DNA of 28,232 bases from Myxococcota bacterium (GTDB taxonomy: Bacteria; Myxococcota_C; UBA6777), in the NCBI GenBank assembly GCA_023150835.1, contig JAKLKB010000091.1, forward strand, positions 1 through 28,232. Reading direction: 5' to 3'. Positions 1-28,015 of this stretch are shown here, piece by piece. How positions within the stretch are numbered: the stretch's first letter is position 1; each line of letters starts with the position of its first letter. The notes beneath the pieces were generated by a model. That model made no database searches, was not told the origin of the DNA, and was given only the letters and a program-made list of their open reading frames with translations. The position numbers and the translations under genes are program-made.

Positions 1-60
1 GCTCCTCCCCCTGCTGCGGCTTTTACACCTCCTCCTCCCCCTGCTGCGGCCTTTACACCC
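1..60 (+). repeat. Two tandem 30-bp in-frame repeat units
   Basis: Units 1-30 and 31-60 differ at only a few positions and share the core CCTCCCCCTGCTGCGGC. They encode a Pro/Ala-rich decapeptide repeated in frame. The array probably continues left of the window. Confidence 0.8.
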
Positions 61-297
61 CCCGCACCAGACTTCGCGCTTACTCCCGATCGAAACTATC
101 TTGCCAAAGCCCTCGAAGGCTCGCGCAAACGCTTCCGCCACCCTGCCGCTGCCCCTTCCTCGGCAGTCGAAAGCGCTCAAACCGAGTACATCCGCCAACT
201 TTCACAAGACGTCATCACCCGCATCGCTTGGGAAGTGGTCCCCGAACTCGCCGAGATCATTATCCGCGAAGCCCTTTCCAAACAACCCCGCTCCTAA
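1..297 (+). CDS. C-terminal fragment of Pro/Ala-rich protein with WEVVPELAE-type tail
   Basis: This gene is open from the first base of the window (frame 1) to a TAA at 295-297, so its start lies outside. The visible 98 residues begin with two copies of a 10-residue unit (PPPPPAAAFT-like). A short linker follows, then an amphipathic end containing ITRIAWEVVPELAEIIIREA. From memory, that terminal motif is common at the C-terminus of deltaproteobacterial and myxobacterial response-regulator, zinc-ribbon and GYF-type regulatory proteins, where a long Pro/Ala linker precedes it. The N-terminal domain that would name the protein is not in the window, so no function is assigned. The next gene starts 110 bp downstream on the same strand. 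Confidence 0.6.
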   Translation, partial: APPPAAAFTPPPPPAAAFTPPAPDFALTPDRNYLAKALEGSRKRFRHPAAAPSSAVESAQTEYIRQLSQDVITRIAWEVVPELAEIIIREALSKQPRS

Positions 298-407
298 TCC
301 CCCCATGCAAGTGTTCCTCACAGATACACCACACAAACAGCTTGCGACTTTCCACCCCCTCCCTTCCCCTTTGCGTAACATCTCTCGGAAAAAAGAAGGC
401 TGATCGC

Positions 408-890
408 ATGGAATGGCTAATTCGTTTACGACTGAGTGGTATCGTGGTGTTATTGGGCCTTTTCGTCGGAGGCATCGGGGCCTTGGTCGGAGCAAAACTC
501 CCGTTTTGGTTGATCGGCTTGTTGATCTTTGGTGCGTCCATGTTGTTTTTGCCCGTCCCACGGCTTCCACACGCTTATTCACAAGAGGACTTGGAGAAAG
601 AACTCCATGATATGCAGCGCGCCCTCTCCGAGATCCGCCTGCTCGAAGAAAAACTCACTCCGATCCAACAAGAGATCCAAGACGCTGGCCTCCTCAAACA
701 AGAACAGATCAAAGCCCTCGATCTGCGCTTTCAATCTCTGCGACAGATGACACCCGAAACCACCACCACCCTCCGAGAGCTGTTGTTTGGCGACCAACGG
801 CGCACGCTTTCGGTGATCGTCGTGATGCTTTCTCTGATGGCCCTTGCCGCCGCTGGCTTTGTCCCAACCTTCGGACGTTGGCTCTTTTAA
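408..890 (+). CDS. Small membrane protein with central coiled coil, function unknown
   Basis: This is a 160-residue protein. The ATG at 408 is preceded by an AGAAGG-type ribosome site at about 394-399 and begins directly with a membrane segment. In-frame codons further upstream would translate the end of the previous gene and a spacer, so I reject the longer form. Visible layout: two hydrophobic segments at about residues 9-28 and 31-50, a charged heptad-like helix at about 60-115 rich in Glu, Leu and Gln, and a third hydrophobic segment at about 134-156 near the C-terminus. This suggests an inner-membrane protein with a coiled-coil domain between its membrane segments. I do not recognise a family. 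Confidence 0.7.
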   Translation: MEWLIRLRLSGIVVLLGLFVGGIGALVGAKLPFWLIGLLIFGASMLFLPVPRLPHAYSQEDLEKELHDMQRALSEIRLLEEKLTPIQQEIQDAGLLKQEQIKALDLRFQSLRQMTPETTTTLRELLFGDQRRTLSVIVVMLSLMALAAAGFVPTFGRWLF

Positions 891-1156
891 TCAGACAATA
901 GGCCCATTCCGCACCTCGTAGGACTTACTCTCCCCCCCTCGCCTCTTCGACAGAAGGGAGAGGGGGCCGGGGGCCGAGGACGACGCGACCTCTGCTCCTG
1001 TCAGATTCCCCCGCCTTTTGGGCTTTACAGAGAAGGTGTCCGAGCGTTCGCAACCTGTCGCTGCCCAAGCACAGGGCATCTGTGTACTCTCCTTCGATCA
1101 CAGATCACTCGGGTATCGTCTAAGTCCTCTCACACCTCAGATATCTGGAGCCTGTC
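891..1156. other. Intergenic spacer with hairpin and dispersed-repeat remnant
   Basis: No gene is supported here. The spacer holds a G/C-rich inverted repeat, CTCTCCC at 928-934 pairing with GGGAGAG at 956-962, followed by a run of G and C. It also holds a diverged copy of a dispersed repeat at 1060-1120 (listed separately). The hairpin may end transcription of the small membrane gene, but it lacks a T tract. Confidence 0.5.
1060..1120 (-). repeat. Dispersed intergenic repeat family A, diverged copy
   Basis: Read on the minus strand, this stretch follows the same order as copies at 6001-6063 (+) and 14392-14455 (-): GATAYCCGRGTGAT, then GGAGAGTAC, then AGAYGCCC, then GGGCAGC. It is the most diverged of the three. 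Just beside it (about 1030-1053, minus strand) is a sequence resembling the terminal repeat of the 5893-6228 element, sharing CTCGGACAC. Confidence 0.55.
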
Positions 1157-3523
1157 GTGCTAGAACATCCATCCAAGACACCCGCCCCGTGGACCCACGC
1201 TGAACTCGATCAACTCATCACCAAAGCGTTCGAGGAAGACACCACAGGCGGCGATATCACCTCCGAAGCGATCTTCCGCCCTCACCAACGCGTCATCGCA
1301 CGTGCGATCGCCAAAGCCCCTCTCGTGGTCTGTGGCCTCCCCGTCGCTGAGCGCGTCTTCTCTTGGCTCGATCCAGCCACCCGCTGGACCGCTCATTGCG
1401 AAGAAGGCCAACTCGTCACACCTCAAACGGTCCTGTTTACCGTCGAAGGAGCCGTACGCTCGGTGCTTTCCGCAGAACGCATCGCCCTCAACTTGCTCCA
1501 ACATCTGAGCGGTATCGCGACCCACGCACGACAATTCGCCGAGGCTGTCGCAGACACACACACCCGCGTCGTCGATACACGCAAGACCTTGCCCGGGCTG
1601 CGGGTATTCCAACGCTACGCTGTCCGTGTCGGTGGATGCTTCAACCACCGCTATAACCTCGGAAGCGGCGTCTTGATCAAAGAAAACCACATCCGCGCCG
1701 CTGGCTCGATCGCACGCGCCGTCCAAGCCGCCCGACAATACGCCCCTCACCTCCTCAAGATCGAAGTCGAAGTGACGAATCTCGATGAACTCTTACAAGC
1801 CCTTTCTGTCCAAGCCGATGTGATCTTGCTCGACAATATGTCCAATGAGATGATGCGCGAAGCCGTCCAATTGACCGACAAACGCGCCCTCTTAGAAGCC
1901 TCGGGTAACGTCTCCCTCGAACGTGTCCGTTCTATCGCAGAAACGGGCGTCGACTTTGTCTCTGTGGGCGCACTCACACACTCCGTCCGCGCTGCCGATA
2001 TCAGCCTGCTTGTTCACCTCGAAGACCTTTCCGCGAATCCCTCTCACACCGAATCCCCTGCTTTTCTTTCCACACAACCGAGTGCATCGACCTCCTCCCC
2101 TCCCCTCCAACCCGCCCCTCGCACTTCGTTCTCCTCGCTCTCCCCCAAACAGGCCGATGCCTCCGCCATGACCTCGGATGCCTCCTCCGCCTCATCCAGC
2201 CCTCCTGCTCTGCCCTACCTGAACCTTGACCAAGCCCTCGCCAAACAAGAAGCCCCCGTCGGTCCCTATCTCCCCGCTGTGCAACCCTTCTACATCGAAG
2301 TCGCCTCCGATCTCGCAAAGCGCCTTGGCATCCCTCCGTCTCCATCCCAAAAATCCGAACTATCCGACGCCATCGAAGCCGCAACTTCTCCATCCCAAAA
2401 ATCCGAACTATCCGACGCCATCGAAGCCGCAACTTCTCCATCCCAAAAATCCGAACTATCCGACGCCATCGAAGCCGCAACCAAGAAACAGACCGATCCT
2501 CCCGCACAAAGCCTGCCTCCCTCGCGCTTTCAAGAGACCCTACTTCCAAAACTCCGAGAGTCTTTGTTTCTCTCACGAGGCATCCGTATCCCGAGTGGTC
2601 TGATCGAAGAAAATCCGCAGATCCGCTCGGGGCACTTTGCTTGCTGGATCGAAGGAACCCACGCAGGCAGCGGCGAGATCCCCGTAGATCGGCTGTTGGT
2701 GGGTGCCACCCCTCAAGAACTTCGGATCTTTCAGATCGAAGGCCGTAAAACCCTCCATCCCCTCAGCATGCGTGATGCCTCATTTGTCGCAGAAACCCAC
2801 AAAGCGCGGCTCAAAGAAGCCTACATCCCGATGTGGAACGCCGAAGAACTCCTCGTCCTCCATCTGACCGCGATCTTGGAACGTCACGCCGAACGCTTCC
2901 TTGGCACACAAGCCCTGCGCGCCGCACTCGATATCGTCGCTCATCACGAGCCTACACTCGTCGCACAAGCCCTCGATCGCTACCCGCTCAGCACGCTCCG
3001 CCGCATCCTCTTGTTGCTCGCCGAAGACCGCCTCTCCTTGTGCAACCTCCACCGCATCCTTGAGTCGCTCCTTGAGATCCCCCTCGATATCCAAGATATC
3101 GAACCCCTCGCAGACGCCACGCGCCGATCCATGCGGCGATATCTGTGCCAGCCCTTCGCTGTTCAAGAAACCCAACTGCTCGCCTATAACCTCGCCCCCC
3201 ACCTCGAACTTCTGCTCCAACACCTTTTCCTTGGGCGTCCCCTACCCGAAGGGATCTCTGCCCCCACAAGCATGGCCCCGATCCAAGCACTCTACAGCAC
3301 CTTACAACGGCGCTTTCGGGCCCTACCTTCGAGCGCAACCCTCCCGCTGCTGCTGGTTCGCGATCACGCCCTTCGGCGCCCCCTCCAACGTGTCCTTCAA
3401 CGCGCCTTTCCTTACTGCGGCGTCTTGTCTTGGCAAGAGATCGATCCCGATTATGACGTGATGATCATCGAAACCTTGGATCACGACGTCCTCGAATTTT
3501 CATCCCACAAAGATACCCCATAA
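1157..3523 (+). CDS. nadC: Quinolinate phosphoribosyltransferase (NadC) fused to FlhA-type export-gate cytoplasmic domain
   Basis: This is a 788-residue single reading frame. The GTG start at 1157 has GGAG six bases upstream. Residues 1-287 are a complete NadC, which makes nicotinate mononucleotide from quinolinate and PRPP in NAD synthesis. It shows TRKT (141-144), NHR (163-165), KENH (175-178), EVEV (203-206), LLDN (224-227) and SVGALTHS (269-276). A Ser/Pro/Ala-rich linker covers 290-370. Residues about 375-780 match the cytoplasmic domain of FlhA/EscV (FHIPEP family): PFYIEV, then LRESLFLSRGIRIPSGLIEE, a GxxxGSGEIPVDRLL strand, LLVLHLTAILERHAERFLG, the STLRRILLLLAEDRLSL helix, and an ending LLLVRDHALRRPL with VLSWQEIDPDYDV. 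The eight-helix FlhA membrane domain is absent. Three 16-residue repeats are inserted at 395-442. NadC is normally about 280-290 residues and stands alone. The fusion is seen directly; the FlhA assignment rests on pattern recognition. Confidence 0.85.
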   Translation: MLEHPSKTPAPWTHAELDQLITKAFEEDTTGGDITSEAIFRPHQRVIARAIAKAPLVVCGLPVAERVFSWLDPATRWTAHCEEGQLVTPQTVLFTVEGAVRSVLSAERIALNLLQHLSGIATHARQFAEAVADTHTRVVDTRKTLPGLRVFQRYAVRVGGCFNHRYNLGSGVLIKENHIRAAGSIARAVQAARQYAPHLLKIEVEVTNLDELLQALSVQADVILLDNMSNEMMREAVQLTDKRALLEASGNVSLERVRSIAETGVDFVSVGALTHSVRAADISLLVHLEDLSANPSHTESPAFLSTQPSASTSSPPLQPAPRTSFSSLSPKQADASAMTSDASSASSSPPALPYLNLDQALAKQEAPVGPYLPAVQPFYIEVASDLAKRLGIPPSPSQKSELSDAIEAATSPSQKSELSDAIEAATSPSQKSELSDAIEAATKKQTDPPAQSLPPSRFQETLLPKLRESLFLSRGIRIPSGLIEENPQIRSGHFACWIEGTHAGSGEIPVDRLLVGATPQELRIFQIEGRKTLHPLSMRDASFVAETHKARLKEAYIPMWNAEELLVLHLTAILERHAERFLGTQALRAALDIVAHHEPTLVAQALDRYPLSTLRRILLLLAEDRLSLCNLHRILESLLEIPLDIQDIEPLADATRRSMRRYLCQPFAVQETQLLAYNLAPHLELLLQHLFLGRPLPEGISAPTSMAPIQALYSTLQRRFRALPSSATLPLLLVRDHALRRPLQRVLQRAFPYCGVLSWQEIDPDYDVMIIETLDHDVLEFSSHKDTP
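2339..2482 (+). repeat. Three tandem 48-bp in-frame repeats inside nadC fusion gene
   Basis: Units are 2339-2386, 2387-2434 and 2435-2482. They are essentially identical, the visible difference being ACT against ACC in the last codon. Each encodes SPSQKSELSDAIEAAT. The array lies between the first strand and the first helix of the FlhA-like domain. Near-identity implies recent expansion or ongoing homogenisation. Confidence 0.95.
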
Positions 3524-3569: not shown

Positions 3570-4328
3570 ATGTCACAACTCAGCGAAACTCCGCTCGACA
3601 CCGAAGACTTCACCCCCGAAGATCTCCAAGTGGCCGACCCCGTCGTCTTCCCGCTCGACGATCCCCCCGAAGATACTCAGCGCTCCCTCCGCAAGATCTG
3701 GGCGCGCCACCAACTCACACCTTACCTCCGCCGTTGGGAAGAAGCCTACGTCCCCAACTTCCCCAACGCGATCTGGGCCTTCGATTGGCGCGCTTGTGAC
3801 GTGGGCTGTGGCTTCGGAATGTTTGTCCTGCGCGAAAGCGCCCACCATCCGTCCCGCGCCTACCTCGGCATCGAAAAAGGTACACGCCGAGGCATCGGCC
3901 TCGCCAAACGCGCCCAAGCCTCCGGGCAAAACAACCTCTTCGCGATCCACGGAAACGCCATCCCCTTACTCGCCGAGATCCCCGACCAAAGCTTCGACTT
4001 GATCACTCTCTTTTATCCGAATCCTTGGTGGCCCACCAAGCACCGGAAAAAACGTTGGGCTTTCCATCCGCTCTTGCCCAAACTGGTGTCTCTGCTCAAG
4101 CCCGACGCCACCCTGCTCCTCGCCGCCAACGAACGCTTCTACCTCTGCGAGTGGTTGTACGCCTTGCGCCATCACCCAGACGTCGCTCCTTTCCTTGTCG
4201 AAGACTACGTCGGCCCGATCCAAGAAACCGTCGGAAGAACACACTTTGAGACCAAATACCTCGAACACGGCATCGCTTGCGGAGAGATCCGCTTCAAGAA
4301 AAAGTACGATAAAAGGATAGACGAATGA
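3570..4328 (+). CDS. trmB: TrmB-like tRNA (guanine-N7)-methyltransferase
   Basis: This is a 252-residue SAM-dependent methyltransferase. The ATG at 3570 follows GAAAGGA at 3558-3564. The SAM site is CDVGCGFGMFVL (residues 76-87), followed by GIEKGTRRG (100-108), the position where TrmB proteins bind the SAM ribose. The family block FYPNPWWPTKHRKKRW is at 148-163. The terminal THFETKYLEHG (224-234) corresponds to the TxxE-containing block. Known family role: forming m7G46 in the variable loop of tRNAs. Most TrmB proteins have PDPW where this one has PNPW, and it carries a roughly 40-residue acidic N-terminal extension, so a diverged paralog is possible. It lies 46 bp after the nadC fusion, and its TGA overlaps the next start (ATGA), indicating translational coupling. 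Confidence 0.75.
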   Translation: MSQLSETPLDTEDFTPEDLQVADPVVFPLDDPPEDTQRSLRKIWARHQLTPYLRRWEEAYVPNFPNAIWAFDWRACDVGCGFGMFVLRESAHHPSRAYLGIEKGTRRGIGLAKRAQASGQNNLFAIHGNAIPLLAEIPDQSFDLITLFYPNPWWPTKHRKKRWAFHPLLPKLVSLLKPDATLLLAANERFYLCEWLYALRHHPDVAPFLVEDYVGPIQETVGRTHFETKYLEHGIACGEIRFKKKYDKRIDE

Positions 4329-24400: not shown

Positions 24401-27400
24401 TTGCGACGGTCTTGGTTTGTAGGGTTAGGGTTGTTGTTTGTGGGATCGGGTGCGTGTGGGGTGGGGCTCGAACTGCTGTGGACACGGATGTTGATGGGCG
24501 TGTTTGGTGGAACGACCTTGGCGGTCGTCACCGTATTAACCGCCTATATGGGGGGATTGGCGTGGGGATCTTGGTGGGGAGGGCGTTGGGTGGATCGCCT
24601 CGGTGGGGGGCAGCGGGCAGCTTGGCAAGCAGCGTGGTTGTATGGTCTTTGCGAGATCAGTGTGGGTTTGTGGGCGCTTAGTTTGCCTTGGTGGATCGGG
24701 GGGTTGCCCAGCCTTCAACGCGCAGTAGCCGAAGGGTGGGGATCTAGTGGTTTAACAGCGGGCCGATTTGTGATCTGCGTCTTGTTACTGGGCGTTCCCA
24801 CAACGCTGATGGGTGCGACGCTTCCGCTGATCAGTCGAGCTTTTTTGCGAGATGCCCGATGGTTGGGGGCAGAAGTCGGGCGCTTGTACGCACTCAACAC
24901 CGCAGGAGCGGTCTTTGGGGCCTTTGTGCTGGGATTTTTTCTTTTGCCATCGTGGGGGATCTGGCGTTCGTTGTGTTGGCTCGCAGGGATCGATATCTTG
25001 ATCGGCGTCTTCGCGTGTGTCGCCGCGATGTGGATGCGCACACAAAAGCCCCAGACATCGGCAGAGATCGAACAGCAGGCTCTCGATTCTACCCCGATCT
25101 TCCCTTCGGCCTCGAAACAGCCGCATACATCGGCAGCGATCGAACAACAGGCTCTCACTTCGACAACGACACCTCCCGCGCTCCCCCATACTCGTGCGAA
25201 AAAGACCATGCCTTCGGAGGAATCGAACCGCGATATCTCAAACGAATGGGACAACGAAGACATCGAACAGGCGGCGAAGATGCAACGCTTGCGAGAGGCC
25301 CGACGGATGGTGGGTTGGGGGTTGGCGTGCAGCGGATGCTTGGGGATGATCGCACAAGTTGCGTGGACACGGGCTTTTTCGATGATCTTGGGATCGTCGA
25401 CGTATGCTTTTTCGATGATCTTGGTGGTGTTTTTGACGGGGCTGGCGCTCGGCGGTGCGGTGGGCGGGTGGCTCGCTCAACGCAGCGAGCGAGCGGGAGG
25501 GATCTTGGGGCTGGTCTTTGGGATCGCTGCGCTCGGAGTGTACTGGACCGTGTTGTCGATGGATGCTTTACCGCTGCTTTTTTTCCGATGGACTCGGGGT
25601 TTAGAGCTATCGACGTGGGCCTTGTTGGGGATCAAAGCCGCGTTGTGTGGTGGGATGATGTGTGTGCCGACCTTGGCGATGGGGATGTCTTTCCCGTTGG
25701 CTTTACAAGCATGGTGGCGTCTCGGCCAACAGATCCAAACCAACGAACGCACCTCCCCAAAAGCCTATCCATCGGCAGAATCAAGCCTCACCGCCAAAGA
25801 AGCCTATCCATCGGCAGAATCAAGCCTCACCGCCAACGAAGCCTATCCATCGGCAGAATCAAGCCTCACCGCCAACGAAGCCTATCCATCGGCAGAATCA
25901 AGCCTCACCGCCAACGAAGCCTATCCATCGGCAAAATCAGACGAAACGACGGAGAAGGTGCAGCCGTTGGGTTCCGAAGTAGGTCGGTTGTACGCACTAA
26001 ATACGTTGGGAGCGATCGTGGGCTCTGCGTCGGTGGGTTTTGTATGGATTCCGTGGTTGGGCGTGCAAGGGTCACTGGGGTGGGTGGCCTTTGGGTATGG
26101 TTTGTGGAGCCTTTTGCTTTGGAGCGAAGAGGCGGAAGAGCGGGGATTTTGGCGAGCATTGAGTTTGACAAGCGGCTTGATGGTGATGGGCGTGGTGTGG
26201 TTTTGGACGCCTGCTTGGTCACCGCATCGGATGAGTTTGGGGTTGTTTCGCGTGGCCCATCTCAAGCGCATGACCGAAGAGGCATTGCGCCAACCCGCTC
26301 CTGTCTTGTTCTACCGCGAAGGACTCCATACGACTGTGACGGTCGAGCGGTTTGGCCCGCACATCGGCCAAAAAGTCAACGGCAAGACAGACGCTTCGAC
26401 CGCAAGCGATATGCCGACGCAGATCTTATCGGGGGCGTTGCCACTGCTGCTGCACCCAAAAGCCCGAGAAGTCGCGGTGATCGGTTGGGGTTCAGGGGTC
26501 ACGGTGGGTTCGGTGTTGCAATTCCCCGTCAAGCGGGTGATCGCGATCGAGCTAGAGCCTGCGGTTGTTGAAGGGGCAAAGTTCTTCGCGCCTTGGAATC
26601 ACCAACCCGAGCGCGATCCGCGTTTGCAGATCCGCTTGGATGACGGCAGAAACTTTCTTGCGGTATCAAGGGAGCATTTTGATGTCTTGATCTCGGAACC
26701 TTCGAATCCTTGGATGAGCGGTGTGAGCGCTTTGTTCACCGTCGAATTTTTTCAACTGGCGCGGGCGCGGCTTCGCCGTGATGGGATCTTGTGTCAGTGG
26801 GTTCAATTGTACGAGCTTTCACCCGATAATATCCGTGCGCTGCTGCACTCGGTAGCACGGGTATTTCCGCACGTTTATTTGTTTGCTCTTTCCAGACGTA
26901 GCCGCGACACGCTGTTGATCGCAACCTTACAACCGCTCCAGATCCAACGTGACGCCATCGCCCAACACTTCGCACACAAACGCAGCCGAGCCGAGTTGCT
27001 GCGGGGTGGGATGAATCACCCGATCGATCTTTTGCCCCGACTGCTCGCAGACGACGAAGCCTTGCGGCTGTTAACACGAGGAGCCGCCCTCAACACCGAT
27101 GACAACGCACGATTGGAGATGCGCGCTCCATTTGAATTATTAACACACGTCGAAACAGACGGTGCCAAGGTCTTGTTGAACGATCTTGGATCTCGCGCCC
27201 ATCGCTGGTCTCGGCTTTTTCCGTTGCCTGTTCTCGCCAAAGACGCCCCTCCCTCCTTGCGTGCGGCCTTTGAAGCCGAACTCGCCCTCGCATGGCTACG
27301 CTTTGGCGATCCACAACGCGCCACTCTCTCCCTTCAAATCGCCCACCGCAAACTCCAACAAGCCCTCTCGATTCCGATCACCACACACCAACCCTCCCTT

Positions 27401-28015
27401 TCGCTTCCAAGCACCCACTCCAAACCCCAAGCAGCCCCCGCACGCTCGACTCTGCCCAAAGCCACTTCCGCGCTTTCGACCTCTGCATCTGCAATCAAAA
27501 CGCCTGAACATCCGCCCAAATCCACACCGACGATTTCGACTTCCGCATCTACGCTCAAAGCGCCCGAACATCCGCCCAAAAGCACGCTACTCAAGAGTGT
27601 CCATCAAGCCCAACAAGTCTGGTCTCTGTTAACACAAACCAGCACAGCCGCAAAGATCGAGGTCTGTGTTCCCGCCTTACAAAACGAACAATTCCAGCCC
27701 GCTCCTCCCGACTGTCCCACGCTCTTTCCCCAACTCCCGATGACCACACGCGATCGCGCCCGTGTGATGACGCTTTCCAGACGTCACCCTCAGCGGATCA
27801 TGACGCGGGGCTTGCTGCTCTATCGAAAAGGTCGAAAAAAGGCGGCGCTTCGTGAACTTGCGCATCTGATCCAAGAACCCGCTTTTTTGCGCCAAAATCC
27901 CGGTGGATACTTCCTATTGGGCCAACTCTACCAAGCCGCCCAGATCGAACCCGAAGCCGTCTGGTTCACCCGCCTTTTTGTCCAATCCACCGAGGCGAAC
28001 CCTCCGCAGCCCTGA
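24401..28015 (+). CDS. Fused MFS-type membrane protein / spermidine synthase-like methyltransferase-fold enzyme
   Basis: This is a 1204-residue protein. The TTG start at 24401 has GGTAGAG shortly upstream and opens directly on a membrane helix. Residues 1-210 hold about six helices ending in EVGRLYALNTAGAVFGAF. A polar loop (about 215-300) precedes a second membrane set (about 310-450). A repeat-bearing loop (455-515) follows, then EVGRLYALNTLGAIVGSA and the last helices, to about 620. Residues about 636-870 form a spermidine-synthase fold: VIGWGSGVTVG near 693, IELEPAVVEGAKFF near 716, LDDGRNFL near 746 and SEPSNPWMSGVSALFTVEFF near 765. The final about 330 residues are low-complexity with a helical end. 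The fusion of MFS-like helices with a spermidine-synthase domain is a known family of uncertain substrate. Its size here comes from inserted loops and the tail. Confidence 0.85.
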   Translation: MRRSWFVGLGLLFVGSGACGVGLELLWTRMLMGVFGGTTLAVVTVLTAYMGGLAWGSWWGGRWVDRLGGGQRAAWQAAWLYGLCEISVGLWALSLPWWIGGLPSLQRAVAEGWGSSGLTAGRFVICVLLLGVPTTLMGATLPLISRAFLRDARWLGAEVGRLYALNTAGAVFGAFVLGFFLLPSWGIWRSLCWLAGIDILIGVFACVAAMWMRTQKPQTSAEIEQQALDSTPIFPSASKQPHTSAAIEQQALTSTTTPPALPHTRAKKTMPSEESNRDISNEWDNEDIEQAAKMQRLREARRMVGWGLACSGCLGMIAQVAWTRAFSMILGSSTYAFSMILVVFLTGLALGGAVGGWLAQRSERAGGILGLVFGIAALGVYWTVLSMDALPLLFFRWTRGLELSTWALLGIKAALCGGMMCVPTLAMGMSFPLALQAWWRLGQQIQTNERTSPKAYPSAESSLTAKEAYPSAESSLTANEAYPSAESSLTANEAYPSAESSLTANEAYPSAKSDETTEKVQPLGSEVGRLYALNTLGAIVGSASVGFVWIPWLGVQGSLGWVAFGYGLWSLLLWSEEAEERGFWRALSLTSGLMVMGVVWFWTPAWSPHRMSLGLFRVAHLKRMTEEALRQPAPVLFYREGLHTTVTVERFGPHIGQKVNGKTDASTASDMPTQILSGALPLLLHPKAREVAVIGWGSGVTVGSVLQFPVKRVIAIELEPAVVEGAKFFAPWNHQPERDPRLQIRLDDGRNFLAVSREHFDVLISEPSNPWMSGVSALFTVEFFQLARARLRRDGILCQWVQLYELSPDNIRALLHSVARVFPHVYLFALSRRSRDTLLIATLQPLQIQRDAIAQHFAHKRSRAELLRGGMNHPIDLLPRLLADDEALRLLTRGAALNTDDNARLEMRAPFELLTHVETDGAKVLLNDLGSRAHRWSRLFPLPVLAKDAPPSLRAAFEAELALAWLRFGDPQRATLSLQIAHRKLQQALSIPITTHQPSLSLPSTHSKPQAAPARSTLPKATSALSTSASAIKTPEHPPKSTPTISTSASTLKAPEHPPKSTLLKSVHQAQQVWSLLTQTSTAAKIEVCVPALQNEQFQPAPPDCPTLFPQLPMTTRDRARVMTLSRRHPQRIMTRGLLLYRKGRKKAALRELAHLIQEPAFLRQNPGGYFLLGQLYQAAQIEPEAVWFTRLFVQSTEANPPQP
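25055..25156 (+). repeat. Two in-frame copies with 72-bp period in the first MFS loop
   Basis: ACATCGGCAG followed by GATCGAACARCAGGCTCTC occurs at 25055-25084 and 25127-25156. They encode TSAEIEQQAL and TSAAIEQQAL in a predicted polar loop between membrane halves. Confidence 0.8.
25763..25940 (+). repeat. Four and a half tandem 39-bp in-frame repeats
   Basis: Units begin at 25763, 25802, 25841 and 25880, with a partial fifth at 25919-25940. They are virtually identical and encode AYPSAESSLTANE. The array lies in a loop between membrane segments of the MFS/spermidine-synthase protein (residues 455-513). Confidence 0.95.
27476..27595 (+). repeat. Two 60-bp in-frame repeats in the C-terminal tail
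   Basis: Units 27476-27535 and 27536-27595 encode STSAS-(A/T)-(I/L)-K-(T/A)-PEHPPKST blocks. They are more diverged than the 39-bp array, so probably older. Confidence 0.8.

What the first reader, a model, noticed from the sequence alone, without database searches (positions are those of the whole stretch)
1157..3523. NadC enzyme fused to a soluble FlhA-type export-gate domain
One uninterrupted frame joins a catalytically complete quinolinate phosphoribosyltransferase to a domain matching the cytoplasmic part of FlhA/EscV, without the FlhA membrane domain. In flagella and injectisomes this domain forms a nine-membered ring that docks chaperone-cargo complexes. I know of no described link between NAD synthesis and that ring. 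The domain may give NadC (normally a dimer or hexamer) a ring scaffold, a protein-binding surface, or NAD-linked control of export.
Basis: partly seen in the sequence, partly recalled or inferred. Interest (0 to 1): 0.9.

Follow-up and report, generated by a model that had tools for sequence, protein, structure and literature searches.

The report
NadC enzyme fused to export-gate domain
In one little-known group of uncultured bacteria, the gene for an ordinary NAD-making enzyme has had the soluble part of a protein-export gate added to its end; both halves are kept intact by selection, so it is a real and, as far as I could find, undescribed two-part protein whose joint purpose is unknown.

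Summary
ORF 1157-3523 encodes one 788-aa protein: residues 21-284 are NadC (TIGR00078, E 4e-97); residues 463-765 match only the cytoplasmic half of FHIPEP (PF00771 357-655, E 4e-40), without the membrane half.

It is not an artefact. A second species of the genus has the same fusion. Synonymous:nonsynonymous changed codons are 42:10 (NadC) and 52:13 (FlhA_C), but 8:20 in the linker, where the second species has no possible internal start.

Origin: in this five-genome phylum the cytoplasmic half of FlhA gave rise to a soluble paralogue. It is free-standing in a sister genus; in this genus it sits between nadC and the next gene, where a third genus has nothing. The fusion is the only NadC found. 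A full-length FlhA and a flagellum-free, type III-like export apparatus are encoded elsewhere.

Most likely: a working NadC flexibly tethered to a soluble export-gate paralogue, without intimate coupling. NAD-linked control or a NadC ring is unsupported but not excluded.

Unexpectedly, soluble FlhA_C also occurs in two unrelated lineages, joined to FlhB_C, a ClpX-like AAA+ ATPase or TPR arrays. I found no description of these in the paper library.

The parts
1157..3523 (+). nadC-flhA_C fusion gene, 788 aa, GTG start
   Evidence: same fusion in L033
1190..2020 (+). NadC domain, residues 12-288, with the motifs AERIALN (106), DTRKTLPG (140), NHR (163), LIKENH (173), EVEV (203), LLDNM (224)
   Evidence: TIGR00078 and Pfam; motif positions; their catalytic role is from knowledge of QAPRTase structures; dN/dS 0.07
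2021..2206 (+). Flexible low-complexity linker, residues 289-350
   Evidence: 8 synonymous to 20 nonsynonymous changed codons; no start codon in the second species
2207..2314 (+). FlhA_L-like segment and first strand of D1 (residues 351-386, ...PYLPAVQPFYIEVASDL...)
   Evidence: Aligns with LVPIVTPIAMEVSNAL of the genome's FlhA and with the free-standing proteins; better kept between the two species than its surroundings
2339..2481 (+). Tandem repeat, 48 bp x 3, 100% identical; encodes a 16-aa unit (SPSQKSELSDAIEAAT) inserted in the FlhA_C domain between first strand and first helix
   Evidence: about 4 copies in L033; place from alignment
2522..3484 (+). FlhA_C/SctV_C domain D1-D4, residues 456-776 (D2 about 508-561, D3 583-669, D4 670-776)
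   Evidence: PF00771, PDB matches, dN/dS 0.09 over 345 codons; subdomain limits carried over from YscV through the alignment
3..890 (+). Upstream neighbour, also upstream of nadC in G002-G004; the true gene is probably the C-terminal part with a membrane segment (start not determined, frame runs off the contig)
3570..4328 (+). TrmB-like methyltransferase; stands directly behind nadC in G003, so it marks the landing site of the flhA_C stretch

Best explanation
A genuine two-domain protein made by gene insertion. (1) Shown: within this phylum a soluble paralogue of the cytoplasmic half of the lineage's own FlhA/SctV-type export gate exists. (2) Shown by synteny: in this genus that domain stands in frame at the 3' end of nadC, between nadC and the trmB-like gene, so the only NadC found now carries it. 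(3) Inferred: NadC works as usual in NAD synthesis and FlhA_C folds independently on a long flexible linker. (4) Inferred, weaker: the soluble domain still works as a cytoplasmic docking or competitor version of the export-gate face, binding substrates, chaperones or sorting-platform proteins of the cell's flagellum-free type III-like apparatus. The NadC part then mainly gives it steady expression, solubility or multimerisation rather than chemical coupling. The confidence is for steps 1-4 together; steps 1-2 alone I hold at about 0.95.
For: NadC family and sole copy, NadA present. FlhA_C homology. Both halves under strong purifying selection, linker not. Free-standing soluble FlhA_C in G002 and G004; tree puts them with the fusion at 100/99 and 98/96 and next to the phylum's FlhA at 89/94. 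Synteny of the landing site in G003. Export apparatus present and rod/hook absent. FlhA_C/SctV_C is the known docking platform for chaperone-cargo (papers).
Against: No T3SS gene was seen beside the fusion or beside the free-standing paralogues in the stretches read. Several docking-site positions named for YscV differ, though they also differ in the phylum's own FlhA; the equivalent of YscV R551 is kept in the phylum's FlhA and lost in all soluble forms. Identity to the own FlhA is only 22-33% per subdomain. No binding partner is known.
Confidence: 0.5

Rival explanations
1. Repurposed domain: the soluble FlhA_C lineage has left secretion altogether and serves as a protein-binding or oligomerisation module for an unrelated partner; fusion to NadC is one of several uses.
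For: Soluble FlhA_C also occurs with a ClpX-like AAA+ ATPase, TPR arrays and FlhB_C in other lineages; long branches of the soluble clade; loss of the R551 equivalent; no T3SS gene nearby.
Against: Every genome with a soluble form in this phylum also encodes a full FlhA and other export parts, and the domain keeps all four subdomains.
Confidence: 0.25
2. Ring scaffold or NAD-linked control: FlhA_C still forms a nonameric ring that arranges NadC subunits, or docks NadC at the export gate so that NAD synthesis and export influence each other.
For: FlhA_C domains form nonamers (papers); a segment in the position of the ring-stabilising FlhA_L is better kept than the linker around it.
Against: Long variable linker makes tight coupling unlikely; free-standing relatives have no NadC; no published link found.
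Confidence: 0.15
3. Accidental fusion without joint function: insertion behind nadC removed the stop codon, and the two domains merely share a transcript and a chain; each does its old job.
For: Insertion at an operon position, flexible linker, independent existence of both parts in sister genera.
Against: The joined state has been kept since before the two species split, with no stop or start arising between the halves; this overlaps with the best explanation and differs only in denying any benefit of the join.
Confidence: 0.08
4. Assembly join or frameshift artefact.
For: The genome is a draft of 239 contigs.
Against: The same open frame in a second species' assembly, 94% identical in each half, with a different number of linker repeats; dN/dS 0.09 across the FlhA_C half.
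Confidence: 0.02

Closest known systems
NadC, carboxylating nicotinate-nucleotide diphosphorylase (TIGR00078)
   Same: Residues 12-288 are a full-length NadC above the family cut-off, in the conserved nadC neighbourhood of the phylum
   Different: About 500 extra residues carrying an export-gate domain; none of the other NadC matches in 60 relatives extended into FlhA_C
Cytoplasmic domain of FlhA / SctV (YscV, CdsV, InvA, MxiA), PF00771 C-terminal half
   Same: All four subdomains, PDB matches over about 310 residues
   Different: No membrane half, joined to an enzyme, a repeat inserted in D1, R551 equivalent lost
Free-standing soluble FlhA_C proteins of the sister genus (L035:7746-9449 -, L036:3218-4375 -, L037:2301-3656 +)
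   Same: Same clade (100/99 and 98/96), no membrane half, disordered N-terminal extension, one with short repeats
   Different: Not joined to NadC and at other places in the genome
Needleless T3SS* of Myxococcus xanthus (PMC12075869)
   Same: The cell's full-length FlhA and export apparatus look like it: export apparatus and sorting platform, no rod/hook
   Different: Here the genes are spread over several contigs; secretin, needle and predation role not tested; the fusion itself has no reported counterpart there

Membership tests
NadC (TIGR00078) | Score above the curated cut-off over the whole domain | tested here: met
   324.6 bits against 198.4, profile 2-267 of 269
NadC (TIGR00078) | Catalytic motifs and pathway context | tested here: met
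   Motifs at 106, 140, 163, 173, 203, 224, roles from knowledge; sole NadC, NadA present
NadC (TIGR00078) | Quinolinate phosphoribosyltransferase activity | not testable with these tools
   Needs an assay
FlhA (TIGR01398) / SctV (TIGR01399) | Full-length equivalog score | tested here: not met
   115.5 against 772.1 bits and 111.1 against 692.25 bits
FlhA (TIGR01398) / SctV (TIGR01399) | Membrane half with the FHIPEP motif region | tested here: not met
   Profile match starts at 357 of 657; no membrane-like stretch
FlhA_C / SctV_C domain | Homology across D1-D4 | tested here: met
   PF00771 E 4e-40; hhalign probability 100, E 2e-62 over 321 columns; PDB matches
FlhA_C / SctV_C domain | Nonameric ring | not testable with these tools
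   Model too poor (pLDDT 42.5); FlhA_L-like segment kept but no structure
FlhA_C / SctV_C domain | Known docking-site residues | tested here: inconclusive
   SD1/SD2 positions listed for YscV vary also in the phylum's own FlhA; the R551 equivalent is lost in all soluble forms and kept in the phylum's FlhA
Needleless T3SS* (for the cell's export apparatus) | Export apparatus and sorting platform present, no needle, secretin or rod/hook | tested here: inconclusive
   FlhA, FlhB, FliP, SctJ, SctN, FliH, FliK-, FliM/N-, FliO-like; rod/hook absent; needle and secretin not searched

The most novel reading that the evidence does not exclude
Soluble export-gate domains are an undescribed, repeatedly evolved class of cytoplasmic docking modules: bacteria detach FlhA_C (with or without FlhB_C) from the membrane gate and join it to enzymes, AAA+ unfoldases or TPR arrays, so that a type III-like docking surface works away from the membrane; here it is built into the only NadC found in the cell.
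Probability: 0.25. Interest if true: 0.85.

Novelty: new variant of a known kind. Interest (0 to 1): 0.62.

Why it matters
FlhA/SctV is studied as a membrane gate whose cytoplasmic ring receives cargo. A selected soluble paralogue, here built into a housekeeping enzyme, shows that the docking domain can be worth keeping without its channel. It makes the question of what FlhA_C does by itself testable on natural proteins, and gives a step-by-step example of how a gene fusion may form: a domain is detached, lives free, lands behind nadC and is joined to it.

Tried and rejected
Naming the relatives gave only 'Myxococcota bacterium KLAP109' for G001. Assembly join or frameshift: rejected by the second species. 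Internal translation start making a separate FlhA_C: the window has ATG 338 and GTG 375, but the second species has no start codon in the linker. Flagellar origin of the cell's FlhA: no rod/hook proteins in any of the five genomes. Papers on FHIPEP, soluble FlhA paralogues, NadC fusions and NAD-export links: nothing relevant found. Searches failed on wrong input.

Full report
Observation. The frame 1157-3523 is open throughout and encodes 788 aa. The first part is NadC (TIGR00078, 324.6 bits, cut-off 198.4). The second part matches only the C-terminal, cytoplasmic half of the FHIPEP family (PF00771 positions 357-655 of 657, E 4e-40) and aligns with solved YscV, CdsV, FlhA, InvA and MxiA cytoplasmic domains. 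The equivalog models for complete FlhA and SctV are far from met and there is no membrane-like segment. So it is an FlhA_C domain, not an FlhA.

Is it real? A second species of the genus (G001, held publicly as Myxococcota MAG KLAP109, contig CAUJFU010000092.1) has the same fusion. Between the two species NadC shows dN/dS 0.07 and FlhA_C 0.09, the linker 0.57 and the repeat insert 0.54. Changed codons are 42 synonymous to 10 nonsynonymous in NadC, 52 to 13 in FlhA_C, and 8 to 20 in the linker. The linker of the second species holds no ATG, GTG or TTG in frame. Both halves are therefore selected for, and a separate FlhA_C product from a conserved internal start is unlikely. A 48-bp tandem repeat in three identical copies (about four in the relative) falls between the first strand and first helix of D1.

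Where it came from. The phylum holds only five genomes, all in one family. All five have a full-length type of FlhA gene (in G002 interrupted by an apparent frame break). G002 and G004, of a sister genus, have free-standing soluble FlhA_C proteins of about 385-570 aa with disordered N-terminal extensions, their starts uncertain. In G003, of a third genus, none was found. In a maximum-likelihood tree the fusion groups with two of these proteins (100/99) and with the third, more divergent one (98/96), and that clade is sister to the phylum's own FlhA (89/94). The soluble rows have long branches, so the sister placement is less sure than the clade itself. The fusion and the two closest free-standing proteins share derived residues in D4 (LRRPLQ). 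Synteny shows the landing site: in G003 the order is upstream gene, nadC, trmB-like gene, the last starting right behind the nadC stop; in G000 and G001 the flhA_C stretch stands between them. In G002 and G004 the upstream gene and nadC are kept, without a trmB-like gene behind.

Cell context. The fusion is the only NadC found in G000 and G001, and NadA is present, so the NadC half is very probably the working enzyme. The genome also encodes a type III-like export apparatus: FlhA, FlhB, FliP, SctJ/FliF and SctN/FliI, and FliH, FliK-like, FliG-like, FliM/N and FliO proteins. No rod/hook proteins were found in any of the five genomes, although the control genomes were positive. This resembles the needleless T3SS* of Myxococcus xanthus, an export apparatus and sorting platform without needle or secretin that takes part in predation (PMC12075869). 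Secretin and needle were not searched here.

How it may work. Shown: two selected domains, a flexible join, descent from the export-gate family. Inferred: NadC acts as usual and FlhA_C folds separately and still offers a docking surface. Isolated SctV cytoplasmic domains form nonamers in a concentration-dependent way and bind chaperone-cargo (PMC9163089), and the FlhA_L/SctV_L segment stabilises rings (PMC8213127; PMC8166844). A segment in that position is better kept than the linker around it, which leaves ring formation open. Against a plain copy of the gate's function, the equivalent of YscV R551 is kept in the phylum's FlhA and lost in all soluble forms. I rate a soluble docking or competitor protein carried by NadC at 0.5, repurposing away from secretion at 0.25, and a NadC ring or NAD-linked control at 0.15.

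A wider pattern. A search of 386 diverse genomes and a closer look at 20 of them found FlhA_C without the membrane half in two more lineages: in family f30, joined to FlhB_C, to FlhB_C plus DUF6745, or to a ClpX-like AAA+ ATPase; in family f99, joined to a TPR array. The f30 forms fall elsewhere in the tree, so such detachment seems to have happened more than once. I found no description of such proteins in the open-access library; most subscription papers could not be searched.

Limits. Structure prediction failed for want of alignment depth. Ring formation, binding and enzyme activity are untested.

Noticed in passing
L104:8062-10626 (-): In G033 (family f30) a ClpX-like AAA+ ATPase is joined to a soluble FlhA_C domain in one 854-aa frame.
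   Followed up: partly
L104:5145-7943 (-); L105:6227-7441 (+); L107:1226-2950 (-); L108:1207-3147 (-): In family f30, frames hold the cytoplasmic part of FlhB (PF01312 C-terminal) together with all or part of FlhA_C, one also with DUF6745; an unlinked FlhA_C-only frame is at L109:5736-7037 (+).
   Followed up: partly
L106:1795-6138 (-) and L106:2-1528 (-): In G102 (family f99) a 1447-aa frame has a long TPR array followed by a truncated FlhA_C, next to a second frame with FlhA_C and no membrane half.
   Followed up: partly
window 890-1157: The gap before the fusion gene is about 266 bases here but about 36 in the second species (L033), so roughly 230 bases were gained or lost right upstream of nadC.
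   Followed up: no
window 3570-4328: The methyltransferase scores well below the TrmB equivalog cut-off (60.8 against 112.65 bits), so its substrate may differ.
   Followed up: no
L042:8653-10857 (-): The full-length FlhA stands apart from the other export genes, beside a TPR protein and an acyl-CoA dehydrogenase; its cytoplasmic half is identical in G000 and G001, and its D4 is 99-100% identical between genera.
   Followed up: partly
window 24401-28015: A 1204-aa frame with a spermine/spermidine synthase domain in the middle (residues 680-829) and a 39-bp tandem repeat at 25761-25939.
   Followed up: no
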